Positions 6,674 through 56,182 of a stretch of DNA of 64,000 nt are shown in pieces. Source of the DNA: Antitrichia curtipendula. Lineage: Eukaryota > Streptophyta > Bryopsida > Hypnales > Leucodontaceae. The notes beneath the pieces were generated by a model. It was not told the DNA's origin. It saw nothing but the letters and a program-made list of their open reading frames with translations, and did no database searches. The stretch spans positions 8,928,001 through 8,992,000 of the forward strand of contig OX579635.1 of NCBI GenBank assembly GCA_951230915.1, given 5' to 3'. Made by a program: the position numbers and the translations under genes. How positions within the stretch are numbered: position 1 is the first letter of the stretch; each line of letters opens with the position of its first letter.

Positions 6674-9600
6674 AAAGAAAAAGTAAGATAACCCCTAAAG
6701 ATGAATGAACCGCCACGGATGGATGACAATTTTATGGATGAGTTGGGATTCTGTTAACATGTGGACATTCAGTTTGCATTCACTGCAGGCTACTACTGTA
6801 AATTTTAATTAGTTGCATATTGTACGAATTTTTACAAATTTAAATAAAATCATAGTGGCAATAAGAAAGAAATTAAACGCTCCATGCAGGCCAATTCTAC
6901 CACCTTTAATGTTATTATTTTTTTTTTTCTTTAAATTATGCATTATAATGGAGATTAGTGTGCCAGGTGCTATTGTCACAACCAAAATAAAAGTAAAAGT
7001 AGTTTTCTAATTTTTCTAATTCATAAAACTTTCAAAATTTAGTATCATTCATATCATAGGTTTAAAAAACACAAAATAAAGTCCATACACCCCTCCTTGT
7101 AGAGAGCTTTGCTGACAGTACCATGAACGCAACCGGAAGACACGAGGTTTAGGAGATCTCACTATAACAAACAAACAAATTCATTTAAAGTTTGGATAGA
7201 TGTTATAGTAATAATAAAACATCATAGCAGAGCTTTTAGCCATTTGAAGTGCTCCAACGTCCATATTATGAATGATGGACCAAAGACTTGCAAATATTGT
7301 TTCATCTAACTAACTTTTCATTCATCCAATGTAATATATGAATATTGAAAAGACAACCTTTTTAATGACTAATTTCATGAAATTGCGGTAATTGATATTT
7401 CTATACATATAAAGATATAAGCAAAAATGTGCAAAAATGTACAAAAATTCAAAAAAGGATCAAGGCATTTAAATGTTAACCATGTATAGACATTGTAACC
7501 TAGAAGGTGTGATGTATGACTTCATTATTAATTGTAAATACAAAAATATACCTAATGGTTCAATAATCAGAGTATTTTGGTGAGTATCTTGGTCAAGGGA
7601 ACCACATCATTCTAGGATTAAAGCCTTAAGCTCCTATATATTGTATCAATGAGCATGAAATTCTTAATTAATGCTACAACTATAATAGTGATGACTACAC
7701 TAGTAGACATTGTATTTTAGACCATTTTAATCCTTTTTTTAAAACCTACATGGACTAACGTGTATTTTCATATGATGTCAAAGGTTACTTGAAGGTGCCA
7801 CATAGGCAATGAACAAGGCTTTATAGCTCCCAAAGAATTTATATTCTTTTTGAGTAAAATAGCTATAAACAATACATCTTAAAAACAAAGTGTAACTACA
7901 CTTTGTAATTTTTTTATGCAACTCTTAACCATAGGATCTTACAATTGACCTGTCCCCCAATTTTTTGAGTTAATTTCTTTAGCATATTGAAGTTTAATGT
8001 TCAAAATAGTGCATCATCTTTTCCCAATCCTTTACAATGACAATGACAATGAGCTCAAAGTAGGCAGAACTACCTAATACAACTGAATTGGAAGGTGAAA
8101 GGTGATATAAAGGTGAAATATTCAAATTGTCCTATTGTAGGTTAGCTTCATAAATACTTAGGAAAAATGTGGAACATGTCTCAAATTAACCCCTAAAACC
8201 CCATTTGTCCCCTCATGGGACAATTTGGGTCCGGGTAGGTTCCTGTGACCTCAATTTGTAGAGAATTTTTTTGGGATTTTTTGAAGTTGTGCGGTTTTGC
8301 GAGAGCTTTGTGGATATATAATTTTTATTTCAATTGGTGCCCAAGAGAAAAAGTTATGCCAAAAATAGAGTTTAGAGGGCAACACAAAAAAATCACAGAA
8401 AGTCAAAATAAATTTCTTAAATATTTTTTTCAAAATCTATGTCTTTTTGTCTACATTTGAAGCTTTGATTCATTCTATTTGGACTAATAATGAAAAAGTT
8501 ATGGACAATCTTAGTTTTTCGGGCAATCTAAGCATCTTCTTGAAAAAATAACTTTTAGGATTCATTTCTTAATGCAGTTTTTACAATTTTCAGAATTTTT
8601 TTTTTAAACAAGGTTGAATTTGCTTTCTAGAACAATCTCACCGTTGGGATTATGGTATTTCAATTTTGTCTTAGAGCTATTAACGATTTAGTTATTCCTT
8701 CAATCTTGAATCTACTTCTACTTAACAATTTTTTAATGAGTAAAAATTTAGTGTTTTTTTCTTGAATTTTTTTTCCTAGATTCTCAACTGAAGTATTCAA
8801 CATATAAACTTAGAAAATCAAAATCAACAATACAAAAAATTTAAGTTAAATAGGTTCAAAGCCCCCAAATCTAGTCAAGCAAGGTACAAAAAAACTTGTT
8901 TTCTTCACTTTGAATGCAAATATCTTGCAATCTATTTATTCAAGGTTTCTGAAATTTCTTGCACACATTCTCATACTAGTCTAGTATAAGATCCTACGGT
9001 TAGATATGCAAAAAAATAATAATTTTTATAGTTTTTTGCTCTTTGCAATAGAAGTGGCAGTTTTGAGTGTGTTTTGATGGAGAAAAGACCTTGGGGTTTT
9101 AGGGGTTAAAAAAGTCGTAAAACTATTTCTGAAAATCTCAAAAAAAATTCATTGGTGCCATTTCTAAATATCCAAAAAATAATCTTACAAAAATTTAGAA
9201 AAAGAACACATTTATACATGAATAGAAAAAATCAATTCCAAATTGGGAGTGTCAAAAAAGGAGGAGGAACAAAATGCCAAAAGTTACAAAAATCAAAACA
9301 AGTTGTTGAACTGTCCAAATTCTAAAAATTAGATTATTTCGCACCAAGGTGTCAAATTTGACTTGAATGTACAGTGTAAAACTCTTAATGAAAAAACATG
9401 TCTTTTGTAACTCAAAGAATTTGATACCATAGTAGATGATTGAATTGAAAATCTACGGAAAAGATTCAAGAAAAAAAATATTATTCTTTTTTTTTAAACT
9501 CCTAAATGCCAACAACCACTTTATAATTGTTGCCCATCTTCATGGGCTTCCTAGATCCCAAGAAAATGCGTTTTTTAAAATTTCATATTGTTCTCATCTA

Positions 9601-10762
9601 GTTCATCAGGTTATCTTCCCATAACCAAAAAAAACATTTAATCTGAACAAAATCTTTCCCTTGGGTGATTTTTCAAAGTCAAACACTTCAAAAAGTGCTC
9701 ATTGGATTGTCTTGGAAGGGAAACCTAGCCAATCAAAAGTCATCGCCTCAAAAACCTTCCATGGGTATGTAAGTAGGCAAGGGGCTAACTAGTTCGAGCA
9801 TAAGTGAATAGGCAAGTGAAATTTTTGTTTTTCCAATCTTCATCACTTGATTGCAAGGCTTCAAAAACAATCTTCCATGGTAAAAATCATTGAAAAAATT
9901 AGCTTGCATATTTTTAACCTCCAAAGTATAAAACCATTGATTTCAAGCCTCATTGTCCATCACACTATTTGTTGCCATTTTGCAACTAGATATGAATGAA
10001 AATCTTATATTTATTTTTTAGAGATGAAGTCATATGTTTGCTACGAGTCATAACATTTTCGGTTTTTTGGAGAAAATATTGAATTATTGTGAATTTTTTA
10101 AGAGGAAAATGAAGGAAATTCATATCAAATACATTCAAAAATTTGAAATTTGCACCATAGATGTACATTATAGTGTATACTCAAGTGTATAACATCATGG
10201 TATTAACCAAAGTTATTGTGTCACTCTAAAATTGGACAATCAACAAACCATCCAACATTCATATTGGTATAAAATATTCAAACTTATGGTGAAAAGCTAG
10301 TTCCAGTGGCATATAAGTTAGACACTAAAATCTTCCTCATTGTTTTTTGTCTCTCCCACTTGGGGTAAGGTAAGTGTCTCTAATAGCAACATGTCTCTAA
10401 AAGTGAGCCCTAACACAAAGATACATTTTACTTTCTTCAAGTTACCAAAATTGTACATTTCAGGAGGAGGTCACTTTTAGAAACCACGGGGTTTCGACTT
10501 CAAAATTTTTTTAACTAATTCCACAAAGGTCCAAAAAATATGAAACGACTTGGAGTAGATGCCAATTCCATTTTTCTTCCTACTAAAATTTACTGAAAAT
10601 TGTTTCAAGGAGTTTAGCTTCCCTGAAAATGCAATCAGCTCTTAAAGGTTTCTTTAACCCTTGAAGGACGGACTGGTAGCCGTGAAAATCATGTATTTTG
10701 ATTCCGTGTGACATCATCTACTTTGAAAAAGCCTAATATATTCTTTGGAAGTTAAAGAACTG
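6674..10762. other. AT-rich intergenic region with a TIR element
   Basis: No convincing gene is visible. The region is strongly AT-rich with many stops in all frames; the short open frames have no recognisable domains. The one clear structure is the inverted-repeat element at 8186-9109, listed separately. A lone TTTAACCC-type end resembling the termini of that family is present near 10650. Confidence 0.6.
8186..9109. mobile_element. TTAACCCC-TIR non-autonomous element, copy 1
   Basis: The left end TTAACCCCTAAAACCCCA is repeated exactly inverted at the right end (TGGGGTTTTAGGGGTTAA). The element is 924 bp, has no coding capacity and has an AT-rich interior. An internal segment around 8925-9010 (motif TATCTTGCAATCTAT, then GATCCTACGGTTAGATATGC) is recognisably shared with copy 2 around 42905-43010, which shows they are a family. 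I could not define a convincing target-site duplication, so the superfamily is unassigned. Confidence 0.65.
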
Positions 10763-10996
10763 TTAAAGATCTTTCCTTTCCACTCCTAATACTGAGGATG
10801 AAAAGTTGCACTTCTGTCCTGTAGGGAAAGATTCTTTGTCATTCAAAGGACGCAGAACGTCCTCGTCGACGTTCAAGGGTTTGAGCCTCCTACCTACTAT
10901 TCGAGGATTGAACATCAAGTTGTGCAGCAAGTATCTCTCACGTTGTTCATCCTCTTTTACGTGACTAAACATATAATTCTCTCGTTGATCACCCAA
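10763..10996 (-). CDS. Small hypothetical ORF (77 aa)
   Basis: This open frame is less AT-rich than the surrounding DNA and encodes a charged 77-residue protein (begins MGDQRENYMFSHVKEDEQRE) with no domain I recognise. It lies 3' of the RNA-repair gene on the same strand, and a run of plant telomere-like CCCTAAA units lies about 120 bp upstream (11119-11140), as upstream of BOP1. It could be a short gene, one exon of a longer one, or chance. Confidence 0.25.
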   Translation of the reverse strand: MGDQRENYMFSHVKEDEQRERYLLHNLMFNPRIVGRRLKPLNVDEDVLRPLNDKESFPTGQKCNFSSSVLGVERKDL

Positions 10997-11118
10997 AAGT
11001 TTCTACGCTAAATGACTATACTGTGACTTGGGTCAACAAAAAATTCAACCCCATTCTCTTTCCTCACCCAGGGCAGTACCCTCCTTAAGGACTGATGTCA
11101 AATGATGTTACAATCTCA

Positions 11119-11140
11119 CCCTAAACCCTAAACCCTGAAA
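11119..11140. promoter_or_regulatory. Telomere-like CCCTAAA run
   Basis: Three adjacent CCCTAAA-type units, the last imperfect (CCCTGAA), read on the plus strand. They could be a telo-box for the small minus-strand ORF to the left, or a tiny interstitial telomeric scar. Too short to decide. Confidence 0.4.
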
Positions 11141-11390
11141 CCTCGGATACCTTCTCGAACCTCAATACAGTCTCAAAATGCTTCCTGGCAGTTCACCTTG
11201 CAATTGCTAGCCTACTCTTCGCAGAGAATGGATAAAGAAAAGAAAAGTTTTGGCATGTGTGAATTACGAGTTGTCATTGCAGGGTTCCTCACCAAAGCTC
11301 AGAGGAGTACACCTCCAATATGGGGGAGTCACTGTAGCTTCAGTGAGGTTAAGCGAGTTGAGGGAAGGCCTTGCTCATCCTCGGGCAAGT

Positions 11391-11514
11391 ACAAGATTCT
11401 TCAACGAGTTCGAGTTCGTTGAAAGTTTCTTGGTTATCCACTCATCTCTTGTAGAAGATTCTTCAACGAGTTTGATTTCGGTGAAGGATTATTGGTTTTC
11501 CACTCATTTCTTCG
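11391..11514 (+). repeat. About 62-bp tandem direct duplication
   Basis: Two adjacent diverged copies begin AGATTCTTCAACGAGTT (at about 11393 and 11455). Each continues through a similar GTTGAAAG/GGTGAAGG, TTGGTTTTCCACTCATTTCTT-like stretch. The repeat lies just 3' of the RNA-repair gene stop codon, probably in its 3' flank. Confidence 0.6.
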
Positions 11515-11610
11515 GTGAACGATTTGGGGGAATGAGGGCTCACTCCTTCTCCAGATATCAATTCCTGTGTCAATGGGCACCCAGAATGCAGACGTCGGAG
11601 GTGAGTTTCA

Positions 11611-14163
11611 TCAGATGCGTGAGGAAGCGGAGCACGAGGGTTCTAGAATCCCATTCGTTTTCACAATTCCTTTGCTCCAATGTTCGTTCCCAGCGATGAA
11701 ATCTGCTCGCACGACCTTTCCCCTCTCCACAGTGCGCATTCGTTCCGCATCCTCAAACCGAACGTACACCCCCTCGACAGGTCCGTCATAGACCGCCGAA
11801 GTCCGGTGCGCGAGCTCCAGAATCTTCTCTCTTGACACGCCCTGCTCTAGATCGCAAATGATCGGCACTTGCTGAATTCCCGTGCCTTGCAAAACTCGAG
11901 CGAGCATCTCCCGCGAGGCGAAGGCACCCGTGACGCGGTCGTAGAAGTCGAACGCCAGGAACACGTCGGGCAGCGTGGAGTACGCGATGGAGTGCATCGC
12001 CACCACCCACTCGCCATACAGGATGTGCCGTTCCGGAAACTCGTCGTCTTGATAAAGGATGGAGTGGAGGTCACGAGCGTGGCGCTCCAGCCAGGCATCT
12101 AAGCAGCGGAACTGCCTGTGAGAGCGTGAGTTTACGATGTGGCTTCGATTCTGCACCACCAGCGATTTGTTGTAGTCGAGAGAGATGCCCATGTTGGCGC
12201 CGTCGATCTTCTCCTCAATGACGACAGGGCCTGTGGAGTGGAAATTGTTTGCGACTAAGTCGTCTGCGCTGGCGGCGCCGAGGTTGATGAGGTGCGGAGT
12301 GCGAGGGAATTTGAGGAGCGGGGGTGTGCCGGCGAGAAGCCTGACGGCTTCGCGAGCTGCGTCGAACGACGGGATGGTGATCACGGCGCTGAATCCTTCA
12401 TCTAACGACGGTTTGATCAAGAGGCGCTTCATTTGGTTCATGGCATTGGCGGATCGTCCAGCTCGCAGAGTTGGGTGGTGAATGCGGCGGTCGATTCTTT
12501 GGGTACAGAGGGAATCGCCGACGTCGAAGTAGACTGCGACGGCGTTAGTGTCGCCAGCATCGGCAAGAGCCAACCAATCGCGTCTCTCAGTTCGGGATGG
12601 GTTGCAACGATCCAGGACTACCATGGTGCCAGGCCGTCGTCTACTGACGGCACTCTCGCAGAGCGCTCTTGAGCCGGTCTCGTCTTGCGACACGACGTCC
12701 ACAGCGGGCTTGCGCTTCTTCAAAGCGGAGGAAAACCAGCTTTTTCCACTTCCGGGAAGCCCCACCAGGATGAGAAGCTCAGGATGCTCTGGAACACGGC
12801 CCTCGACACGCATCGGAGCCGAGGGTTCAGGGAAATCTGGCTCTGTTTTCAATTTCCAGCGGTAGCTGATCCAATTCGAAATGAAGTGCTCTTGCTGCGC
12901 CGTCTCAATGGAGCCCGGTCGGAGCGTCCGCAGCCATCTGATCACGGTGGCTGCGTCGCAAATCGGCTTCTGTTGCACGCTGGTCGGCTTCTGAAAGCCA
13001 TACAAGGCGATGTAGCATGCGAGAAGCGTCCCCGCCCTTCCTTTCCCTCCTCCACAATGAACCAACCAAACCGTCTGCTCCTCATGAACGGCGTCAAGGA
13101 AGTAATCCACCTCTTTGAACGTGGGCGCCTCGTAATTCGCAACCGGGATGAAGATGTTCTTCACCGTCTTGAATGCAAACCAAGAAGCTGGCAGCGGCTC
13201 CTCTTCGGTCAGAGTGAGAATTCGGTTGATGCCGAGTTTCGCAAGCGTATCCACGTCCTCGGCACTGCGAGGTGTGGACATGCCAGCCAGAAAGTACGGC
13301 ACAATCCATGAAAAGAACCGAGGCAGCTCGTAGGATTCAAACCATAGCCGTTCTCTCGAGATTGCAGCGAGCATTGTCGGAGGATGTTCAAGCAAATCGT
13401 GACCAATCTCACGAGCCTCGGCGCACCAAGCATCTCGTAGCAGAATCTCTCTCGTCTCCTCGGAGATCGATTCTCGTTCTTGCCTGGTCATGAGAGGTCC
13501 GTAATGGGTGAACGGCGCGAGGCGACGAAGCCGCCGCGCGACGTAATTTCTCACTGTCGAACCATCGAGCAACAGTGCACGAGCATACGCGAGCATCGAC
13601 AGCTTAGGATTGTCAATTACGCTCGCATCTCCCAATCGCAAAAAACTCTTTGCAGACTCCGGGTGAGCGATTGCAGACGAGATCGATAGAGGCAGAGTGA
13701 GCTGACTACGGATCCCGTGAAGATGATGCAACACATGGTCCTGTTTCTGCGAGGGGAAATCTGGAAACGCCAGGACAAGCTCCTCGGGGTTCAGAAGCGA
13801 AGACGCGTTCTTGGCAACGCTGTGCACGTCACGACTTGTGAGCGTGATATGAAAATCCTTCGCTGGAAGACCCAATTTCTTCCGGAATGCCGCCCCGGCG
13901 GACCACACGCAAACAACCCAGTATACTCTGTCGATTCCTGCACCGCCCAGGCCAAGGAAGTAGAGCTCGTCCACACAAATGCTGGGAGTCTCCTCATCAG
14001 TACTACCCAGGAGCTCGGATCGATATTCTTCTTTGGCCACAAGAGTGATGTGATATGGCGTGCTGGGTGCATCCCCGCAAACCCTAAATTTCCTGCCTGT
14101 CTCGTCGATCACGGGACCCAGTAACGCCAGGCCACCGCTAAATCTTGTGAGCGTGGCCGCCAT
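11611..14163 (-). CDS. Four-module RNA healing/sealing enzyme: 2H-CPDase, phosphatase, kinase, RNA ligase (850 aa)
   Basis: A single uninterrupted frame with four catalytic signatures in order. Residues about 1-125: a 2H phosphoesterase with two HxT motifs (H38-I-T40, H105-I-T107; context LGLPAKDFHITL), the fold that opens 2',3'-cyclic phosphates. Residues about 285-440: a dual-specificity-type phosphatase with CX5R signature HCGGGKGRAGT (C370, R376). Residues about 460-615: a P-loop kinase (GLPGSGKS at 468-475; SQDE around D494; VVLDRCNPSR at 515-524), as in polynucleotide kinases. Residues about 620-835: an RNA-ligase nucleotidyltransferase with motif I EKIDGAN (K652 the likely adenylated lysine), motif Ia VQNRS, motif III YGEW, IIIa FLAFDFYD, motif IV EGVYVR and motif V GKVVRADF. 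Together these could process both ends of a broken RNA and join them. The order differs from plant tRNA ligase (ligase-kinase-CPD). It is GC-rich and intronless, unlike its neighbours. Motifs are seen directly; substrate and role are inferred. Confidence 0.85.
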   Translation of the reverse strand: MAATLTRFSGGLALLGPVIDETGRKFRVCGDAPSTPYHITLVAKEEYRSELLGSTDEETPSICVDELYFLGLGGAGIDRVYWVVCVWSAGAAFRKKLGLPAKDFHITLTSRDVHSVAKNASSLLNPEELVLAFPDFPSQKQDHVLHHLHGIRSQLTLPLSISSAIAHPESAKSFLRLGDASVIDNPKLSMLAYARALLLDGSTVRNYVARRLRRLAPFTHYGPLMTRQERESISEETREILLRDAWCAEAREIGHDLLEHPPTMLAAISRERLWFESYELPRFFSWIVPYFLAGMSTPRSAEDVDTLAKLGINRILTLTEEEPLPASWFAFKTVKNIFIPVANYEAPTFKEVDYFLDAVHEEQTVWLVHCGGGKGRAGTLLACYIALYGFQKPTSVQQKPICDAATVIRWLRTLRPGSIETAQQEHFISNWISYRWKLKTEPDFPEPSAPMRVEGRVPEHPELLILVGLPGSGKSWFSSALKKRKPAVDVVSQDETGSRALCESAVSRRRPGTMVVLDRCNPSRTERRDWLALADAGDTNAVAVYFDVGDSLCTQRIDRRIHHPTLRAGRSANAMNQMKRLLIKPSLDEGFSAVITIPSFDAAREAVRLLAGTPPLLKFPRTPHLINLGAASADDLVANNFHSTGPVVIEEKIDGANMGISLDYNKSLVVQNRSHIVNSRSHRQFRCLDAWLERHARDLHSILYQDDEFPERHILYGEWVVAMHSIAYSTLPDVFLAFDFYDRVTGAFASREMLARVLQGTGIQQVPIICDLEQGVSREKILELAHRTSAVYDGPVEGVYVRFEDAERMRTVERGKVVRADFIAGNEHWSKGIVKTNGILEPSCSASSRI

Positions 14164-15539
14164 ACCATCGTCAGCGAGCTAGCGAGTACTATCAATCGTG
14201 AAAGGTTTGGTTTCAGCTAAAATGGTTCACTCCTTTAAATCGATGGCAGTCCACATGGGAATTTAATCCCACTAGCGATGGAAACGCGCACGTGAGTGCG
14301 ACTCCATCAAAACTTTGGCTTGAAGACTACTCCAGGAATTCTTTGCACGCTGAAAGAATTGATTGACTAGAAACAGATGGCCGACAGATGGAATCCAGAG
14401 TTTTTATTGTCACATTACTTAGAACGCATGAAATTCGATTTTCTTTAATTTAAAATCGTCCATTAGGCAAATATGGGTCCATGTCTGTAGCCTTCAAAAC
14501 TAATTACACATTTGGGGGGCTGCCCAACGACGATTTCTATATTAAAATTTTAGGTTCCTTTGGCGATTCAGGATTTGAACAAATAGTTCAAAGTTGCTAT
14601 CCAGAATAGACTTAGGAATGCTAAATAGCAATTCATTGATTTTTCAACCTCACATAGAAGCAGATTCATCAAATTTTAAGCATTTGGACAAAGCAATAAC
14701 CATCTTGAGGAATGAAAATAAACCTTACAACTACAGAAGCCAAACATTGAACCAATACATACCATATTACACAAAGAAAGAATTCAAAGTTGAACATGAA
14801 AAATGTTCTCAAGTGTTCATGAAACAATGTAGCAACATAATAATAAAGTGTGTTTGATGTTCAATGTTTGAGTCATGTACCAAGCACAACCAACTTTGTC
14901 CAAAAAGTGGCTCATATGACTCTATAGTAATGGAAATCTGAACTACATACTTCAACCCCAAAAGCCAACAATACCAAAACAAAAGCCCATTTGCCTATAT
15001 AGAGCAACATGGGCAATAACTAGCCATGATTGCATTCAAAGGTTTTCTTGGTATCTGCCCCACTTGGACTTAGCAAGTCTCCAATGTTCAATTGCTTCTT
15101 TGTACGGCATGGTTTGAATTCTCAAGTGTTTTTGGGCAAACATAGCTGCACACAAAGCAAGATGGTCTGTTAAGCTCCGGGTGATACCAATTCACGAGTC
15201 CACTTCCATTTGTTGATCTCTGTCTCCATTTCTTTGGGCTATCCAAAGACATTTTTGATAACACCAAGATGATGTTGCAGTTGTCGCTCATCTACATCTG
15301 CAAGCCAAAATTGTAGATATACGATGCATAGAGCATCCATTATGTGGCTTGGTGGAAAGCGGTTGGATAACTCCATCATCATCTTTTGTTGCAGCCCCTA
15401 CATGACACTCAAACATCTACCACCAGATTAGAAGGACTGAATCATCTTCCAAACTGAATCACCAATTAGATTAGAGCAACCAAATTGTTGAAGAAGAAGA
15501 ACCTTGCACATCTTTTTTCACTTCAGCCTAGACCATCTC
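14164..15539. other. Intergenic region, 5' flank of the RNA-repair gene
   Basis: AT-rich DNA with no convincing gene. The portion nearest 14163 should hold the promoter of the RNA-repair gene. The part from about 15040 may be the degraded 3' end of the adjacent transposase remnant. Short open frames here have no recognisable domains. Confidence 0.5.
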
Positions 15540-17182
15540 CTATAGATCATGTGTAACAAACCCTTGTGTCCTAGTTGAGGTATTGAAGCAAGTGGCATTC
15601 AAATGTGACCTTGCCGAAGTTTCATGATGAGCTTCAAATACCAGATGATCGTCACCATCGTTCAAGTCTGGTTGACATCGTAATCTCACATGATTGTTGT
15701 TCAACTCAAAAATAGAATTGAACTCTGAAAATGCATCAGACTTGAAAGCCGTTTCACCATGGACATAGGCTGCGTGAGTGTCTTGTTGGCAAATAGTTAA
15801 TGCCTTGGTAAAGTTATAAACGTATACATTTTGGGACTGGGCAAAAACTATTAGATTCTTCATGATTTGTAAAAGAAGTAACATAGCAGCCAACCACAAC
15901 AAGGTTTTGACATCAGCCAAAAGTTCAAAGTTGGCACTAGCTCCTTTAATGGTTGGCTTCAGCAACACTTGATACTCTGTGAGGACATGTCTCAATGGGG
16001 ACAACATTGAGATCCATCGTGTTTTGACATTGTTCAAAATTTTATCGCCCTTTGAATTTAGCAACTCTCATAACTTTTCCAATTCAAAATGTTGCTTGGG
16101 ACTCTTACTAAAGTAAGAATATAACTTCTTTAGTATCTTTTCAAATTTAGAGATCATCTGGAAGTCTGACAAAACCTCCACAGCTAGGTCTGTCCAATGA
16201 GCAACGCAGTGCATTCCAACACAATGGGGTACATGAAGTCCTTGTAGTTGTATAATAACTCCAGTCCGTTTTCCCTACAAGACAAATGCCCCATCTGAAC
16301 TAAAGCAAAGGAGTTTTTCTTGAATGTCTTCTTTCTTTAAACAACCATTATGATTGATGGACCTCACAATGACTTTGGTTATCTCTAGGGCTATGGCACC
16401 ATTTGTCAATCTCTCCAAGCTCAACAACATGGTTGTTGTCAACGTCAGGGGATCCCCTATTCCAGAAAATGACGAGGCCGGGCCATGACACCCTTTTTCA
16501 GTTAATGAGCACATAAGTATAAATAGAAATCCATGATTGGTTGTCTATTGTAGTTACCTCATCACAGCTAAGGGAGAAATAGTTGGATCCACTCACTACT
16601 TCCTTTGTCCGCTTTTGCACCACGTTGTACATACTCTTTGCAAGTTGCCAACCTAAAGAATCGGACCAATGTTTTACTTGTAATTTTGGGCAACGTAGCT
16701 GCTTCAGAAGAACACACATGTGTTCATATTATGTCAAAGGTCGGCCAAAAGAGAATAAATGAAAAATAACAACCATTTGAACCTCTTTTCGTTTTGGTGC
16801 AGCCCCAGCTACAACTGCCGTGAAAATGTCATGCACTGGCAAGGCAGCATACCTTCTTGTGCTTGGATTCAGGATTCATCTAAGACTCTCCTTTTTATTT
16901 CCCCAATTTTGGTTTGTCACTCTTCAAAGTTGTCTATCCTTCATGCTTTCTTAGGTTGTCCCCTCTGGCGTCCAAGAAGTAATCATGTCTAGAGACACGA
17001 GAGCATATGATACATTTCACTTTTTTATAATTTCCAACTCCATTTGGGTCTTGTTTACACCATAGATACTTCAAGGTCCAATTCTCTTGGTATTCCTTCC
17101 TGCAATAATTGAAATGAAGTAGAAAATGAGTTAGACTTACAACTTGCATAAAAAAAATATGATTCCATAAGATAGACATCAA
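15540..17182 (-). pseudogene. hAT-like transposase remnant, copy 1
   Basis: Several broken reading frames on the minus strand line up as one decayed transposase. At 17180-16934 there is a BED-type zinc-finger-like stretch (CIICSRVSRHDY...LRKHEG, with WCKQDPNG before it). At 16720-16500 is FSLSCDEVTTIDNQSW, followed by GCLKKEDIQEKLLCFSSDGA at about 16400-16290, both typical of the RNase-H-like core of hAT/DUF4371 transposases. At 16064-15540 is a segment with KTRWISMLSPLRHVLTEY. The pieces sit in different frames with stops between them, so the gene is not functional. The same motifs recur in copy 2 at about 40960-43440 on the other strand. Confidence 0.65.
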
Positions 17183-18872
17183 AAGATTGTCATGAGAATA
17201 GTCATAACACCAATTTTACTAATCAACATTCTAATCCATTTACAATCACAACTTCTAAAATCGTACAACTTCTACAACTTCTAAGTCCTAAATCCAACGA
17301 AAGTTGTAGAAGTTATAAAATTGTAAAAGGATTGTAAAATCACAACTCCTAAAATCGCACAAATATGCAATTCAACCTTATTCCTTTTATTATGTTAATA
17401 AATTTTTTGCAAGGTCTTATTAATAATTAAAAGAAGATTCTAGATTTTCTTATAATTCATTTTTGGGACTCTATATGAATAAACTACAAATTTTCAAATA
17501 AGATTTAGGATAATCAACTATATAATCTCTTAAACATTTAACGCTACAATCTAGACTATGTGCTTTTCAAGAATGGTCAAAATTATCTTATCTTGTGACT
17601 CCATGACTCATTGTGCCATGTGCCTAGGTAAATACAACCAAATGTGACACCTTCTTGTTTTCCAATATCTAAAAAATGTTGAATGAATACTTTCATAACT
17701 CATAACCACCACAAACTTTCAAGAGCAGCTAATGACACTTGAGACGTTCATTACTTTAAGGATGTTCCTTCAAGGGAATTCTAGTATTATGTATAGATTA
17801 TCTTGTGTTCTCTTGAACTTTATAAATTTGCAAAATAGTATCCAAGCACCAAAAAATTATGAAAACACTTGGATTGCATTTTTCTCAAGTTAACTAAAAC
17901 ATCTCTCTAAAACAATTGTTATTCAAACATTGAGATAGTAGGACTAGAAAAAATGTCACTTTGAGGTGCTCATACCTAAACACAAGTCATATTGTACAAA
18001 ATGAAAATAAATGAAAAAACCATCCTTGGTATCTTGGAATGGGTCCATTATTTTTATGTTACCTAGAAGAAGTTGCAAAGATTCTACCTCATCCAGAAAG
18101 ATCTAAACATTAAGCACTCATTACAATTAGTGTAAAGGTTGTCTAAATTGTTGTCTGAAAATAGTTGTTTACAAAGTTTCAGAGACAAAGACTATTACTA
18201 AAAAAAACTAATCTTTACATTACATCGACCATTCTTCAATATATGATTTTGGAGGTGATTCTTTAGGGCCCACACATCTTGTTGCCTGTTACTGAACAAT
18301 ACATTGACTGAGTGAGAAAAATTGAAAGACCCAGTGCAACGGGGACAGTCTCTCAGAGCTAGTTCTTGTTTACCCTGCCAGGCCCGAACGAAGTCATAAG
18401 CCTCAGACCCTTCACACTTGTAAGTAACATGAGGGACACAAGGCTATATATTAACAGCCAAAGCTAGGAAGACTTTCTGTTAATGAAACCTCAAAATTAT
18501 AGACGTGACATTGTTGACCCTATGCCATTGTTGTGGATCCTTTTTGCTGGAAAATTTACATCGTTTGTAAAAGTGAAAAGTGAGCTACAAATGATAAAAC
18601 AACATTTCAACGAGACCTAAAGACGTAAAATTTACAGTGAGCAGTCTACAGACAAGTCATGCTTGTCAGATCAGGGTCTGAATGAATGGAGTCTGGAATT
18701 CTCCTATGATATAAAAGCAACTACAGGGTAGAGACTGTAGACTGCAACTGACAAGGAGTTTTGATGTCGAAGATGAAGGAGGACGTCTATGAGACAACAA
18801 GAAAAAATGAACCAGAAGATTCAACAAGACGTGTTGAATGCATAGTACAACGTCTGTGTTCGATTAGAGGAA
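17183..18872. other. Intergenic region, 3' flank of the HMG gene
   Basis: AT-rich; no gene recognised. A short inverted pair occurs around 17257-17325 (ACTTCTACAACTTCTAAGTC against GAAAGTTGTAGAAGTTATAA). Sequence from about 18300 to 18872 is less AT-rich and is probably 3' UTR and terminator region of the minus-strand HMG-box gene. Confidence 0.45.
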
Positions 18873-24492: not shown

Positions 24493-27400
24493 TTATGAGC
24501 CTGGATTCAACTTAAATTTCGGCTGAATTCCGAATGCAAAGAATAGAGCTGCGACCACCAAAAGCGCCATTGCCAGCAGAAGGCCGTAAAACAATGTGTT
24601 CTCGGTGCGCTTCTGTAGTTCAATTTGCCGAAATGGTATGTCCGACCAGAGTTGCTGGTAAGAAACTCTGTAACCAAACAAACAGATCCCCACTTACTCA
24701 ATAGACAAATTAGAGAGACAATTGTACCCAGCATGGTCTATGAAAACCAGAACATACACGCACTAAAGTAAGGCAAACAGTTGAGGGATTTTGTTGACCA
24801 AGGAAGCTATACTTACGGTCTGAAAATCTTTGGAGCCAATTTATGGAGGGAGGTGAGCATCATCATTTGTAAGCTGGGAAAAAAACCAAGCGGGAACAAT
24901 TCTCGGGTCGTGTTCATTCTAACAATCGCATGAGCATCCTCCAGCCGTCGTTTTGAAAACTCCATTGCAACTTTTTCATAATTGATACCTCCGTTCCCTG
25001 TCCAACAGATACAGTATCATTCTTAGAAGAATTCAGGCATCACAAGCATGAGAAGCTTGACTGGGAATACATTGATCCTGTAATTTATGTGACCGAAGAA
25101 AATGCAAATGTCAAGCCAGCACGAGAGACGGACACTGAAACCTATGGGAACATTCATTGTATCAATCTAACGAGGTTAAAGCGTTCAAGCTGTAGGTACC
25201 GCTAATAAATTCTCCAAGGATTTGGTCCAGATGTAGGCAATCCTCAAGAGCCACGTTGCATCCCGTGCCATATGACGGAAGCTGAAGAAAACAGAGTCAG
25301 TTGACAGAACCCCACTCTCAAAGCATCGGCTTAACACACAATACACGTCACTCTCGGTTTAGACAGGGCTGCTACATTATGCATTATTCACCGATGTATC
25401 GTGTAAGAGAAGATGCAAAATATAATTTATTTTGGTACTCACCATGGCATGTGCAGCGTCACCGATTACAAGACAGTTCCCATGGTGAAAACGAGAGAGG
25501 GTGACGGCCCCTCCAAATGATATTGCTGGCTGCTTCAGAAAGTCTTCACAAAAATTGGGGTTTTCTTCCAGAAGAAGGTCCAACAATTCTGGTGCGTTTT
25601 GCCTGGTTCATCACCCATTACCAATGTCAATGAAACTGAATTTAGCTAATGGTCTGTGTGAGGCTAATTGTAAAAGCCAATACTCACAAACAGTCATTTG
25701 CTCCAACGGCAAAGAAGATCTTCACTCGTAGTGATATACACAAGGGGCCAACCATACCGACTCCTTCGGCAGACCTTAATTTGAGGCACTGATATCAATT
25801 TAGTAAACTTCTATGACCCGACATAAATACGAACATACAATGATTAAAATCTGGAAGATGGTACGATATTTGGCAAGGACGCTTATACGATAGAGCTTGA
25901 GACACACTGACCTGAACAGAAGTTCTACCTCGTGTGCAGAGGATGCATCCATGAGCTGCTTATTCTTGGAGCCACCCCAAAAACTGCCGTCAGCCATTCC
26001 TGTCGCGAGTACATTGATCACAGGCCATGCCTGCACCCACAACTCATGTAATAGTTGGTAATAGTACTCTCTCGTGGGTGGCATTGGCCGTTAGTACATG
26101 ACGCGGTTGACGTACTGGCCCATACATTAACCACGAAAAATGTGCATACATACTCGCAAAGCTCATGCGACACAATACCTGAACTCGGTTGCGATCTTCA
26201 TAAACGGGAGACTTCTTTGCTATCTCAGGTCTCACATAGAAAGACTTGTATGACTCACCGCTGGGTTGGAAGTCCAATGTCAGAGGTTTCAAATTCCTGA
26301 AGGACACATTAATATGTTAAGGTTTACTAGTACGCTCGTGAACGTCCAAGAGCGACAAATCACAAAAGAACGATTGATTGCAAAGCTAAAGATCGCCTCG
26401 TGTCTCTTATGTCTTACATACTTTTGGGGGGAAGGTGCTCCAAAATTGTCTAATTTCATCATCTCTGCTCGAACTGTACTTTTGACGCCGTCCGCACCCA
26501 CCAAGAAGTCATATTTGACTTCCACCGACTCCGGCTTTGGAGAAAAGAAATCCTCCGAGCTCAGTCTGAAGGAGGCAGTATTCGTAGTTGCGTCGACTGA
26601 CTTAAGTTCGTACTCGAAATAGGTCGTCAAGTTTGGAAGCCTGGAGTGGCAGAAACATTCAGGCAAGTAAGAGGCTATGATGCTTCACATTTGGTCTCGA
26701 TTGCTCCAAAATACATGAAAATAGTTCGGAACAAGAAGAGACCAATTTATGGGCTAAAGATTCAAGCCAGAGTAATGTAGTAGAAACTAGGATCGGTTCT
26801 ACCTGTCATGGAGAGATTGTTGCAACCATGCAACCAGCGCATTCCGACTAACACCAAAGCTCAATAGTCCTGGCTCGTTAGAATAGTTGAATTTCCTCTG
26901 CATCCCACGTCAATTCCAAAACAGAATCACACATATATTAAACGAACTTGTAAGCATTCGTCAGCATGTAAGGAAGAATAAATACATACGACACACAACC
27001 AGCTGATATTACCAGGAGTTGAGACATTGCCAGCAGGTTTAGGATGCCCAGTTAGCCATTGGTTATTAGAAGCCAGTACCTTTTTTCCATTTGGCTGGTG
27101 CATGCAGCTGCCGAACAGCTGATTGAGAAGACCAGGAGGCACCTTCAATCCTGCACCTTCGAAGGCCTTCATAGCTCTTGACGTAAGCAAGATGGTGTAC
27201 GATCGTGAATCCCCCCGGGCGTAAACTTGTTGCCCGCTTCCATCCCCCTCTGCCAGTGCTTCAAAATCAACTTGTAAGTTTCCATCGCAGCGTGCCATAC
27301 CATACGAAGACACAGAAAAGCAACTAATGACAATATGGCATCGAGCAACACAACCTGCAGTCTATATCACATTGGATCTACATTGATTTCCCCAATTTCA

Positions 27401-50841: not shown

Positions 50842-53800
50842 TTAATCTTCGTCCCCTTCAAATTCCATCAAAGTGTCGTCGTCCAATCCTTCATCCTCAA
50901 CTCGTTGTGCTTCACATTGTACAGCTACATGTGCAGTTCTGAGATCCTCCTCCGTCATATGTTCTCCCCCATTGTCATTGTTTTCGTCACTAGCATCTGC
51001 ACTAATGTCTACAAAGCTTTCCTCACTCATGTTGTGCACAGAAGCACTATAGTTTCTGTTAGACACTTCCTCAATTCATGTCGACCTTGGATTAGCATGA
51101 ATAACAACTGACCATTCCGGTTCCTCTCCACAATTGGAGAAGAATATTTGAGATGCTTGAATGGGAAATACAAACGAATTTGCTGACCTCCGCATCACTC
51201 TATTCAACTTCAATAGAGTGTAACCAAATTTGTCTTTCTTTAAACATGTCGTTGGGCCTCTCCAAATTGGCACCACCCAATCGCACAACAATACTACCGG
51301 CTTCAATCGTCCGTAGTCCAACTCCATAATTTCTTGTATTTTACCAAAGTATGTCATTGGCCCATATACAGAATTACTGTCAGAGGGACCACTACATTGC
51401 TCTGTCTTACAAGTGACAGTCACTCCTGAATCCGCCGTCACCAAATTGAACTCGGCACTTGACACCCGAAAATGCTTTCCATAGACTTTCATTGACTTGA
51501 AAGACCGCGTCCTTAAGTTGGGGGGCATGGACAAATCCACCACATCGTCTTCAAAGGACTCATTCCCCGCTTGTATTGTATTCCCTAACCACTCAGGGAA
51601 ATCTGGAAGGGCATTCAATTCCCTGGGATACTCCAACCGCCTTCTTTACCTTGGATGTATTCCAAGTCTGTAAGATGCTCTACCTCTCATGATGTCCGAG
51701 GACAAACGCTTGTGAGTCCTGCTTCAACAACAACACATATGCATCGTAAGTTTGTGCTGGATAGAATGTGAGACACTAACCTATTCACAAATGCAATGCA
51801 TGCTCACTTGTGCAACATCCGTAATACAGAAAAGCACCATGGAACAACAAACCAAAAATACAAATGACTTCCATACTCACTCTCTTAGTCTATCAAGACA
51901 AGTCGAGTTGTTTAGCACACAAGAATGCGCCCATTGGCATTCTTCAATGGACAAATTCCGATTCTTGGATGCTGTGCAAGGGACCTCTCCACTATCTCCA
52001 AGTTCTTCATCCGCATCCCAGACACGCTTACGAGTGGACTCGCATTCAAGAATGTATTCTGTTGATAAACCAAGACTAACTTCCATTGCCGTACCACTTG
52101 CCATACAACCTTCGGGTCGAGCTTTATTTCGTACGTATGACTTCATATACTTCATGTACCTCTCAAGAGGGTACATCCAACGGTTATGAACCGGACCGCA
52201 CAAATGAATCTCTTCCACCAAATGCACAAGCAGGTGTGTCATTGGATCAAAAAATGAGGGAGGAAATTTTCGTTCAAGCAAACACAATGTTATTGCCACT
52301 TCTTCATTCATCAAGTCCATCTGCAATGGATCCATTACCTTTGAACATATCCTCCTGAAAATAGAACTCAATTGCATAATTGCTTTTGTGACTCGATCTG
52401 GCAACAAACCTTGAACACACACGGGAATGATTTCCTGCATAAGCACATGGTAATCATGGCTTTTCAAGCCATGCAATGATCCATCAGGGGCTATTTTTGA
52501 CTTCAAATTGGACATAAAGCCCGTAGGACTTCTCAAGCTCCTCAGTCTGTCTATGAACCTTCTTTTGTTCTCCTTTGATAACACGTAAGGAGCATCAGGG
52601 ATACGAAAACCTGATTGCGGTGGTTTCTCTTTTCGAATATGCAAGGCTCTCTTGCACCCGACTTCCTTCATATCATTACGGACTGAAGGACCGTCCTTCA
52701 TACCTAATAATGTATTGAGTAGGTTCTTGGCAAGGTTCTTTTCACAATGCATTACATCGAGGATATGCCTTATTAAGAGTCTCTGCACAACAAGCAAACA
52801 AAATTGAACATAGAGATATGAGAAACATAAGAGCTTTTCTCATACATTTGAATGGAAACGACCTCTACAATGGAAGATGAAGCGGCTTTGGAGGAGTTCT
52901 TGCTAACCTTCCAAAAAATTTAATTAACATAAAATGATTTCAATTGGACATATGCATTGAAGAGAATGAAGTAACTCACGTCCCAATATGGCAATTTAAA
53001 AGAATTGAATGCCTCTTCACGCCATTTCGTTTCACAGGATCATTGTCACTCCCCGCCGTCCCACCTGCAGCTAACCACCTCTCTCTTGCCTCACCCCTCC
53101 TTCGATGCTCAAGGCCTGATACTCTGATAGGTTTGGACCTGTGTTCTTCTTTCCCATTGAATGATTCAGTCATGATTCTGAAAGGGTGATTTTCCCGACA
53201 AGTAACGGCGATGCCCTTGAAAAATATTTTTCCTCAAACTCATAGAAAACCTTGAGTCTACATGGGGGCCGCAAATGGGACATCCTTGGTAGCCCTTCGT
53301 GGCGCATCCGGATATTAATCCATAAGCTCGATAATCATGAATGGTCCAAAGCAGCATCCCTTGAAGTATGAATGCACTTGGATTTGCACTATTGGACATG
53401 TCCACTGCTGGCACCCCATCCCACAGCAAAAGCAACTCGTCTACAAGAGGTTCTAAGTAGACATCAATGTTGTTGGATTTCATAGACTCTTTTCCAGGTA
53501 TCAACAATGATAGCATCACAAAAAACCGCTTTGTGACCAACCACCCAGGCAAGTTGTAATTTAAAAGAAATATCGGCCAAGTAGAATGCCTAGTTGATTT
53601 ATCGGCAAACGGATTCATTCCATCGAGAGTTAATCCAAGCTTGACATTTCTACTCTCTTGAAAAAAGGCTCTATCAATTTTTTCAACTTCTTTCCATGCA
53701 GGACTATCCAGTACAGATCGGACCTTCCCATCAATGGAGGGATTTTTATCGTGCCACCTCATTAGGGTAGCAATATCACGACAACGATACATTTTTAGCA

Positions 53801-56182
53801 GTCTCGGAAATAATGGAAAATGTCTGAGAACTTTAATGGGAATTGAAGTGCTCCCTGCTACATATCCAGAAGACTTACATTTGGGACACTGGGAGAGATC
53901 TTGTATGTCTTTCCAGAAAAGAACACACCCATTCCGACAGGCATGGATGGTAGAAAAAGAAAGACCTAAGCGATCAATGAACCTTCGAGCTTCGTGTCGA
54001 GTCTTTGGTAATCTGTTTGAGGGTGGTAGCACATCTAATTTCAAGAAGGAGAAGAGTTCATCCATGAAGGAATTGCTCACATTATGCAAATGCGCTAAAT
54101 TCATCAATACAAGAACAGAAGCTAGTGTTGAAACTTTTGAGCCACAATACAAAGGTACCTGACTCTGCTGTAGCCATTCCTCCATGTGCGGATCAGCAGA
54201 GTCTGCAAAGACCTTTACTTCAGCTTCATTCCCATTTTCATCAACTTCTGTATTAACAGCAATGCTTTCTCTCCTATCATCAACTTCTTGAAACCATTCC
54301 GATGTGAGTCTTTCAAAGTCAAAAGCTTCGTCAAAGTTCTCTTGCTGTGGAATATTTCTGTCATCATTGGCTACAGTTTCAGACTCTGCCTGGTCACCAA
54401 AGTTGAAGTCCTTTGCATCTGTGTCCTCAGGCTGCAAAAAATAACAATGTAATGGTCAGAGACATTATGTAAGGTACATGACTAGCTAAGGTTTACATGC
54501 ACAAGCACATTCAAGATTGAAAAAAAATCCATATAAGAACAGGTAAGATGTGCAAACATTGAAGTTTGCATCCTTCAAGGTGAACTGAGGACAAGTTGTT
54601 TTTTCTTGAGTACCGATCATGAATTCTAGTTTCCTTTCTCCCACTGCTCCTAATCTAAAAACCACAATTAAGTGACTAAGTTGGTTTTCCAACAGCAGTT
54701 TCCCGTTCAAGCCATGCTCTATAGAACATCCATGAATTTTGCAACGCATTGTTGAATGGACAAAATTTATGGAAAACAGAAGCACTGAACAAATCACTTT
54801 CCCTCTTTGAAATACTGGCATGCAGGAAGCACTGGAAATATATACTACTCCCAACCTTTATGGAATAGCAATGTCTAAGATTTTGATAAAACTCTTACCT
54901 TTTTGTTGAGAGACTGATTAATTTTGCATTCTGGAAGAGCACACACCCAAAACCCTAAAGGAAAATGTTTTACACTTCTTGACACGGACTGATTTGTATT
55001 GTGGATTTAAAACTTGAAATTGTTTTTTGATTTCACCATCTCAGTAGTTGAGGTATGCTAGCAAGAGTTACAATGTATGTCAAATTTAAGGTAGCCACAT
55101 GAAAGACTCTCCGTTTTAGAGTTTTGCATTGGACTTATTGTACAGGAAATTTGATTACTGAAAGTTTTTTATGGAAGCATTTCGTTAGTCCTCCATAAAA
55201 TAAGGGTAGTTTTGAGCCTGAAAGGTAGGTCTGCACATGACATTGCTTAGCTAGTCGAAAACTAAAAACTAAATGAAATTTTTAATTTAGGTCACTAATG
55301 CTTGAACTAGATAGAAATCAAAACTGCTTTTTTTGTTTAAACTTGTTTTCTGATGAGGTACAGAATTGAACAATCTAAGTTGGCAGACTATTTAATTTGT
55401 CCCGCTATCTTCTCAAGCAGACGCCTCTCTTTGCAGTCTCCATCTACGCATTAGTGCAAAAAGTGCCTCCCAATGTCATTTCACTTTGAGAAGGTGGCAG
55501 TGGCTCTGTTCTTGTTACCCATCTTAAATTTGAAATGTATTGCAATGCTAGTATTGAAGAAGTTATTTTCTTAGAATGAAGGACATTCCAAAGGCCACAA
55601 AGTATAAAGAATGTCTACTGAAGAACTAATTGCTCTTAGTAAAAAGCCACATACTAATGTTTTTGCGGAATCTTTTTCTATGAAGAGCATGTCTGCACTA
55701 GAATGCGGCCTCTATAAAGACTCTAACGATAAAACTGAAAAGGAAATTTTTTCTATTGGTCAATGCATGAGGACATTGCTGTTTGTAGTTTCACTTTAGA
55801 AAACCTAAGTAGAGGAAGGGCTTTAAGGATTTTGACTACACGTAATCTCTCCCTTCTTGAAGGCATTTTCGAACTAGGTTTTCGTAAGCGTCACCAACGC
55901 CAGAAGCAAAAGAGAAGATGAAGCATCATAGTAAGGAAATCAAACTAGAGGGACTGGAAAACTTACTAGCATTGAATGCATGAGAGTTGGATCTCTACCA
56001 TGATGGCGCAAGTGTCCTTCAATTGTGCGTCGTAAAATTGGTCGTCCTCCACCTTTGCACTAAGTACAAGGGCACTTGTAACTACTCAGAAGTCGTTCGT
56101 TTGCCCGTGATCGGTCTAAAGCATTCAATGTCATCGCTAAGGGTGCAAATCTTGTAACCTGGATTGCAGGGACTTGCTCCAT
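50842..56182 (-). pseudogene. CACTA TNP2 transposase, defective
   Basis: The transposase that cuts and moves CACTA elements. A first exon at 56182-55967 (MEQVPAIQVTRFAPL...) encodes the zinc-binding transposase-associated domain (CPC..C, IEGHLRHHGRDP) but has an in-frame TAG at 56062-56060. From 54431 to about 53190 comes the Transposase_21/TNP2 core (LGLTLDGMNPFADKSTRHST, LLWTIHDYRAYGLISGCATKG, CPICG). The block FNGKEEHRSKP (about 53165) is in a different frame, and the frame returns by about 53010 (FKLPYWD, donor at 52979). The next exon starts at 52782 (RLLIRHILDVMHCEKN) and carries the DUF4218 domain through about 51880. DUF4216 follows at 51636-51079 (VYGPMTYFGKIQEI, CDWVVPIWRG). A TGA at 51078-51076 then precedes an acidic tail ending at 50842. 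The family is clear, the splice edges partly so; as read it cannot make a full protein. Confidence 0.85.

What the first reader, a model, noticed from the sequence alone, without database searches (positions are those of the whole stretch)
11611..14163. Single-polypeptide RNA repair enzyme: cyclic phosphodiesterase + phosphatase + kinase + ligase
One intronless 850-residue frame carries intact signatures for four RNA-end activities: two HxT motifs (2H fold), a CX5R phosphatase loop, a P-loop kinase with polynucleotide-kinase-like motifs, and all five nucleotidyltransferase motifs of an RNA ligase. Established knowledge: plant and fungal tRNA ligases are ligase-kinase-CPD, and T4-type repair splits kinase/phosphatase and ligase into separate proteins. 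Here the order is reversed, and a cysteine phosphatase domain is inserted between healing modules. Inference: the protein could heal and seal 2',3'-cyclic-phosphate/5'-OH or phosphate-blocked breaks, acting in tRNA repair, a stress response or defence against ribotoxins.
Basis: partly seen in the sequence, partly recalled or inferred. Interest (0 to 1): 0.92.

Follow-up and report, generated by a model that had tools for sequence, protein, structure and literature searches.

The report
Moss-borne fungal-type RNA repair enzyme
A moss-like genome carries one intact gene for a protein that appears able to trim, phosphorylate and rejoin broken RNA, a 'Swiss Army Knife' repair enzyme already named as a family and best known here from fungi, probably gained through gene transfer and not yet tested in the lab.

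Summary
Pfam finds 2H-SAK, PTP-SAK, AAA_33 and RNA_ligase, all above cut-off. AlphaFold (mean pLDDT 86) gives a DUSP23-like phosphatase, a PNK-like kinase and an Rnl2-like ligase.

The architecture is not new. Pfam calls it 'Swiss Army Knife'; the named homologues listed are mostly fungal. The closest named relative is the moss Ceratodon purpureus (72%), on a 16-Mb contig; named fungi follow at 41-47%. Moss-type sequences form one clade (100/98) and the data reject fungi as one group, so horizontal transfer is likely.

New detail: the usual phosphatase acid Asp is Asn (164 of 172 ungapped), while the Glu that is the main acid in DUSP23 is kept (188 of 189). I predict a Glu-driven RNA-end phosphatase.

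Most likely function: heal 2',3'-cyclic-phosphate/5'-OH RNA breaks to 3'-OH/5'-P and seal them. Substrate and biological role are untested.

The parts
11611..14163 (-). 850-codon uninterrupted ORF, 2H-TPRlike-PTP-PNK-ligase protein (ATG to stop)
13822..14130 (-). 2H-SAK phosphoesterase domain, residues 12-114
   Evidence: Pfam PF22547 5e-18, 66 bits vs cut-off 27
14050..14052 (-). H38 of first HxT motif
   Evidence: His in 113 of 121 aligned, 5 of the rest gaps
13849..13851 (-). H105 of second HxT motif
   Evidence: His in 114 of 121 aligned, Tyr 4, gap 3
13378..13791 (-). TPR-like all-helical linker, about residues 125-262
12880..13323 (-). DSP/PTP phosphatase domain, residues 281-428
13135..13137 (-). 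N343, at the position of the DUSP23 Asp65 acid
   Evidence: profile alignment; Asn 164, Asp 7, Thr 1, gap 22 of 194 aligned stretches
13036..13056 (-). CX5R signature C370-R376
   Evidence: Cys 182 of 182 and Arg 183 of 183 ungapped
12904..12906 (-). E420, aligned with the Glu of RPGSIE in DUSP23 (Glu134)
   Evidence: Glu in 188 of 189 ungapped
12424..12777 (-). P-loop polynucleotide-kinase-like domain, residues 463-580
12739..12762 (-). P-loop GLPGSGKS 468-475
   Evidence: G468, P470, G471, G473, K474 each 121/121; L469 107, S472 110, S475 114
11638..12321 (-). RNA ligase nucleotidyltransferase domain, residues 615-842
   Evidence: PF09414 9.7e-27 (646-807); Foldseek to Naegleria RNA ligase 6vtf 2.3e-7 and T4 Rnl2 2hvr 2.1e-6
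12208..12210 (-). K652, predicted AMP-accepting lysine (motif I EKIDG)
   Evidence: Lys in 121/121

Best explanation
A moss copy of the 'Swiss Army Knife' RNA-repair protein family, most probably gained by an ancestor of these mosses from a fungus or fungus-like source. Proposed mechanism: the 2H domain opens a 2',3'-cyclic phosphate; the DUSP23-like domain, with C370/R376 as nucleophile site and E420 rather than the usual Asp as acid, removes the remaining 2'- or 3'-phosphate; the kinase adds phosphate to the 5'-OH; the ligase seals 3'-OH to 5'-P after AMP transfer through K652. Unlike the plant/fungal tRNA-ligase route this would leave no 2'-phosphate at the joint. Shown: sequence, domain matches, conserved residues, predicted folds, phylogeny. 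Inferred: every reaction, the RNA target, the host, the donor and the role in the moss.
For: Pfam domains above cut-off; signature residues conserved; confident model and structural matches for three catalytic modules; full architecture in 118 of 121 set-1 proteins; Ceratodon copy on a 16-Mb contig, and nine sequences at 64-92% above a drop to 41-50% in the other 111 listed; moss clade 100/98 and fungal monophyly rejected; purifying constraint; DUSP23 precedent for Glu134 as main acid (PMC9038691, passages).
Against: No activity has been measured. The 2H domain rests on Pfam and motifs only; the structure search of residues 1-280 had no match at E<=0.001 and the rows shown were mostly TPR. 117 of 118 set-2 proteins show no full 2H-to-ligase chain (54 PTP-kinase-ligase, 46 kinase-ligase, 17 without 2H only); many may be fragments, but the named rotifer, oomycete and Ectocarpus proteins have the short form, so 2H is not needed everywhere. 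Only one of the nine moss-like hits is named; calling the other eight and the window moss is my inference. The sister group of the moss clade is unresolved in the careful tree. A phosphatase without its loop Asp may be slow or act on other substrates.
Confidence: 0.72

Rival explanations
1. The phosphatase domain works on a phosphoanhydride, for example trimming 5'-triphosphate RNA to 5'-monophosphate so that such ends can be ligated, rather than on 2'/3'-phosphates.
For: The loop Asp is Asn in 164 of 172 ungapped. PMC9038691 (passages) lists RNA 5'-phosphatases (MCE1, baculovirus enzyme, DUSP11/PIR1) among PTPs whose loop lacks the WPD motif.
Against: E420, matching the DUSP23 Glu134 acid, is kept in 188 of 189 ungapped, so an acid is probably available. 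The closest fold is DUSP23; I recognised no RNA triphosphatase among the 50 rows shown. A 2H plus kinase partner fits healing of endonuclease breaks better.
Confidence: 0.12
2. Moss and fungal copies are both vertical relics of an old eukaryotic gene lost in most lineages, with no transfer.
For: Homologues also occur in oomycetes, a brown alga and a green alga; the moss clade is deep and its sister unresolved.
Against: No named land plant other than Ceratodon is among the 120 best hits (a capped list of 543); bdelloid rotifers group with seven basidiomycetes (97/91), which vertical descent does not explain; GC stands well above the flanks; many losses would be needed.
Confidence: 0.2
3. The window contig is fungal or a fungal contaminant in a plant assembly.
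For: Uninterrupted, GC-rich frame with fungal relatives.
Against: The window protein is 92% identical to one moss-like sequence and lies inside the clade that holds Ceratodon, while named fungi are at 41-47%; the flanks are 26-44% GC. The neighbouring genes were not placed: a tnp2-type transposase and a weak FAD-binding match do not name the host.
Confidence: 0.03

Closest known systems
'Swiss Army Knife' (SAK) RNA repair proteins, Pfam PF22547 (2H-SAK) and PF22784 (PTP-SAK)
   Same: Same domains in the same order in 118 of 121 set-1 sequences, window included
   Different: Host is inferred to be a moss rather than a fungus; otherwise an ordinary member
Plant/fungal tRNA ligase (Trl1/RLG1)
   Same: Cyclic phosphodiesterase, kinase and ligase activities on one chain (PMC3400036, passages)
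   Different: Domain order differs (order recalled); no tRNA-ligase Pfam family among the 15 matched; SAK adds a Cys phosphatase that would remove the 2'-phosphate made by the yeast/plant cyclic phosphodiesterase
Bacterial Pnkp-Hen1 and Pnkp1-Rnl-Hen1; phage T4 Pnkp/Rnl1
   Same: Heal both ends, then seal (PMC4411300, abstract and introduction); kinase domain related by profile, well under the NCBIfam whole-protein cut-off because one domain matches
   Different: Two or three separate proteins; Hen1 methylase not matched here; that they use other phosphatase types and no 2H is recalled
Human DUSP23/VHZ phosphatase
   Different: Asp65 replaced by Asn; embedded in an RNA-repair chain
Rnl2-type RNA ligases (T4 Rnl2, Naegleria gruberi RNA ligase)
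   Same: Nucleotidyltransferase fold and motifs
   Different: 13-19% identity in the Naegleria and T4 Rnl2 rows; no PDB sequence match at E<=1 for the ligase piece; extra domains of those ligases not examined

Membership tests
Swiss Army Knife RNA repair proteins | 2H-SAK domain with two HxT motifs | tested here: met
   66 bits vs cut-off 27; H38, T40, H105, T107 present
Swiss Army Knife RNA repair proteins | PTP-SAK domain with CX5R | tested here: met
   197 bits vs 27; C370, R376
Swiss Army Knife RNA repair proteins | P-loop kinase and RNA_ligase on the same chain, same order as homologues | tested here: met
Swiss Army Knife RNA repair proteins | RNA-end healing and sealing activity | not testable with these tools
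   needs protein assays
Plant/fungal tRNA ligase (Trl1/RLG1) | Match to a tRNA-ligase Pfam family and ligase-kinase-CPD order (recalled) | tested here: not met
   none among 15 families listed at E<=1; order is 2H-PTP-kinase-ligase
Rnl2-type RNA ligase | Nucleotidyltransferase motifs I (K652), Ia (R673), III (E718), IIIa (D739), IV (E797), V (K816) | tested here: met
   each 120 or 121 of 121; motif names recalled
DUSP23-like DSP | Fold and CX5R loop | tested here: met
DUSP23-like DSP | Loop general-acid Asp (Asp65) | tested here: not met
   Asn343 in the window; Asn 164 of 172 ungapped
DUSP23-like DSP | Glu134 acid | tested here: met
   E420; 188 of 189 ungapped; position by alignment, geometry not measured
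2H phosphoesterase fold | Known 2H structure as neighbour | tested here: inconclusive
   search of residues 1-280: no match at E<=0.001, rows mostly TPR
Known anti-phage defence protein | PADLOC model match | tested here: not met
   0 families at E<=0.1

The most novel reading that the evidence does not exclude
Mosses captured a complete fungal RNA-repair machine in one piece and use it to undo RNA cuts made by fungal or bacterial ribotoxins or by desiccation; its phosphatase is a new chemical variant, an RNA 2'/3'-end Cys phosphatase that has discarded the loop Asp and works through the remote Glu alone.
Probability: 0.3. Interest if true: 0.7.

Novelty: new member of a known kind. Interest (0 to 1): 0.45.

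Why it matters
If right, a land-plant lineage owns a second, self-contained RNA-repair route beside its tRNA ligase (the latter by general knowledge, not tested here), obtained from outside plants. The patchy spread (fungi, moss, bdelloid rotifers, oomycetes, algae) makes the idea of exchanged RNA-repair tools in biological conflict testable in a moss such as Ceratodon. The Asn-for-Asp swap gives a sharp enzymology test of how DSP phosphatases act on RNA ends. I found no biochemical study of this architecture in the listings, which search an open-licence library that lacks most subscription papers.

Tried and rejected
Viral origin of the fusion: a scan of viral contigs with the single protein found nothing. 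With the alignment, 80 of 81 relatives were kept; all 80 match the ligase part, 6 of 80 also have a kinase match in another ORF of the fetched stretch, and none a 2H or phosphatase match at E<=1e-4. The scan patterns were one ligase and one phosphatase motif, so the sample leans to the ligase.

A stand-alone 2H-TPR protein: none scored E<=0.001 among 5423 candidates; the tool's length rule limits these to about 154-490 aa.

Transposon capture: in 8000-18000 the longest inverted pair flanking the gene is 50 nt at 70%, no better than chance to my eye. Defence-system label: no PADLOC model. Rfam and tRNA genes in the window: none reported (tRNA scan used bacterial settings).

The rotifer link: two papers report horizontally acquired RNA ligases induced by fungal attack or by radiation (PMC11258130, PMC10809525, passages). 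I could not show that they are these genes, and in PMC11258130 RNA ligase was not enriched after desiccation. The ligase piece alone has no PDB match by sequence at E<=1.

Results against my reading: the careful tree leaves the sister of mosses open and is rooted on a very long branch that I chose (Ectocarpus, 3.08). The AU tests were run after trees had been seen, and the rejection of fungal monophyly may be driven by the rotifer/oomycete group rather than by mosses. Old paralogy with loss is not excluded.

Rows dropped: the tree used 61 of 239 sequences; one search used 36 of those 61 (rows labelled unknown and a partial Cutaneotrichosporon row dropped). The 'moss' label of the eight unnamed rows is mine.

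Full report
Observation. Translation of the plus strand at 11611-14163 gives many stops; the 850-aa frame is on the minus strand, ATG at 14163, stop at 11611. Pfam gives PTP-SAK (281-428, 2.2e-58), RNA_ligase (646-807, 9.7e-27), 2H-SAK (12-114, 5e-18) and AAA_33 (463-580, 1.5e-12), each above its curated cut-off. GC is 53-60% in the windows over the frame and 26-44% on either side; codon positions are 0.60/0.45/0.64 GC.

Relatives. A protein search scored 7994 candidates (those sharing most words) and found 543 at E<=0.001, of which 120 are listed. Nine of the 120, 64-92% identical, stand apart; the only named one is Ceratodon purpureus M758_8G169100 (72%, longest contig 16.25 Mb). The other 111 are 41-50% identical; those with a name are Basidiomycota or Ascomycota at 41-47% (phyla by my knowledge). 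A second search with the kinase-ligase half found 805 of 7995 candidates, 120 listed, among them bdelloid rotifers (Rotaria, Adineta, Didymodactylos), oomycetes (Phytophthora, Globisporangium), the brown alga Ectocarpus and the green alga Trebouxia. No named land plant other than Ceratodon is in either capped list, and many rows have no name. The 2H-TPR half alone found nothing at E<=0.001.

Architecture. With segment profiles, 118 of 121 set-1 sequences (window plus 120) show 2H-TPRlike-PTP-kinase-ligase and 3 lack detectable 2H; of 118 set-2 proteins 54 are PTP-kinase-ligase, 46 kinase-ligase, 17 lack only 2H and 1 is full. Set 2 was limited to about 218-693 aa by the search's length rule, so it over-represents short forms and gene fragments. 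The three rotifer, two oomycete, Ectocarpus and one Aureobasidium protein looked at are PTP-kinase-ligase.

Conservation. Across 121 aligned sequences C370, R376, P-loop G468/P470/G471/G473/K474, D494, D518, R560, K652, D654, G655, R673, E718, E797 and K816 are invariant; D739 is 120/121, H38 113, T40 111, H105 114, T107 112, and within the P-loop L469 107, S472 110, S475 114. Window and nearest relative differ at 60 of 800 compared columns, but at 0 of 140 that are at least 97% conserved and 3 of 203 at least 90% conserved; no permutation of 20000 was as low as 3. The gene is therefore under purifying constraint.

Phosphatase chemistry. In the profile alignment N343 falls on the Asp of DUSP23's IPDF loop, Asp65. 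Of 194 stretches aligned to the phosphatase profile, 172 have a letter there: Asn 164, Asp 7, Thr 1. The seven with Asp include Ectocarpus, Trebouxia and one named fungus (Lyophyllum shimeji). E420 in RPGSIE falls on the Glu of the same motif in DUSP23 (Glu134 by counting, allowing for one extra residue in the chain), and is Glu in 188 of 189. PMC9038691 (passages, and part of one section) states that in DUSP23 Asp65 is subservient to the remote Glu134 as primary acid, and that RNA 5'-phosphatases such as MCE1 and DUSP11 lack the WPD motif altogether. So the family has probably kept the main acid and lost the subsidiary one. This is inference from alignment.

Phylogeny. A quick tree of 61 of the 239 sequences puts the 10 moss-type sequences (window included) together at 100, next to a mixed Basidiomycota/Ascomycota group at 93. 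A careful tree of 36 mostly named rows gives the moss group 100/98, rotifers with seven basidiomycetes 97/91, but leaves the sister of the mosses open. Holding all 19 fungal rows together costs 159.7 log units (AU p 7e-60); without Aureobasidium 153.7 (AU p 5.5e-10); these tests followed a look at the trees. Transfer among eukaryotes is the simpler reading; direction into mosses is inferred from the breadth of fungi. Deep paralogy with loss remains possible.

Mechanism. Most ribotoxins leave 2',3'-cyclic phosphate and 5'-OH (PMC4411300, introduction). Yeast and plant tRNA ligases open the cyclic phosphate to a 2'-phosphate with 3'-OH (PMC3400036, passages) and, as I recall, seal with it in place. 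A chain with 2H, phosphatase, kinase and Rnl2-type ligase would instead restore plain 3'-OH and 5'-P and seal without a 2'-phosphate. Each step is inferred from domain identity. Forms without 2H suggest either that another enzyme opens the ring or that they act on phosphate-blocked ends.

What is known. The architecture already carries the Pfam name Swiss Army Knife. The review that I believe described it (Burroughs and Aravind 2016) was not held. No paper in the listings showed biochemistry of this fusion. Likely moss acquisition of fungal KP4, and a fungal-type HET domain in moss, are mentioned in PMC11228847 (passages). I therefore rate it a new member of a known kind, with a plant host and a phosphatase active-site detail as the fresh points.

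Host. The tree places it inside the clade that holds Ceratodon, so a moss is the likely source; its neighbours are a tnp2-type transposase and a weak FAD-binding match, which do not settle the host. The genome itself could not be searched.

Bacterial kin. The ligase domain's closest bacterial relatives lie in a conserved gene trio with a candidate anti-phage label in the two loci tested; see Noticed in passing. This ties the ligase subfamily, not the fusion, to conflict systems.

Noticed in passing
L001-L080, for example L001:3952-6690: The closest bacterial relatives of the ligase domain are ORFs of about 250 aa (median). By BLAST clustering 61 of 80 loci share one neighbouring gene upstream and 53 of 80 a second just before the ligase; in 51 both stand in that order on the same strand. 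In the two loci examined (L001, L002) the first is an AAA_15/DUF3696 ATPase and PADLOC's best models are HEC-03B and HEC-03A, a candidate anti-phage system; PADLOC had no model for the ligase. A three-gene ATPase - small protein with a PIN-like pattern (recalled, untested) - RNA ligase operon may couple RNA cutting and sealing.
   Followed up: partly
L021 6618-11532; L034 5868-8246: Helicase plus PglZ genes (L021), and a TOTE primase-helicase gene (L034), lie directly downstream of bacterial ligase homologues, as might be in defence islands.
   Followed up: no
window 51076-54455 (-): DUF4216 (just under its cut-off), DUF4218 and Transposase_21 (tnp2) matches in three separate ORFs: probably a CACTA-type transposon split by introns or decay.
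   Followed up: no
window 26289-26684 (-): Weak FAD_binding_3 match (18.2 bits, under cut-off), possibly one exon of a monooxygenase gene.
   Followed up: no
window 11389-11512: A 62-nt tandem duplication (85% identical) about 100 bases beyond the gene's stop codon.
   Followed up: no
P0121: A 430-aa kinase-ligase protein 73% identical to the window over 97% of the query, likely another moss-type copy or fragment.
   Followed up: no
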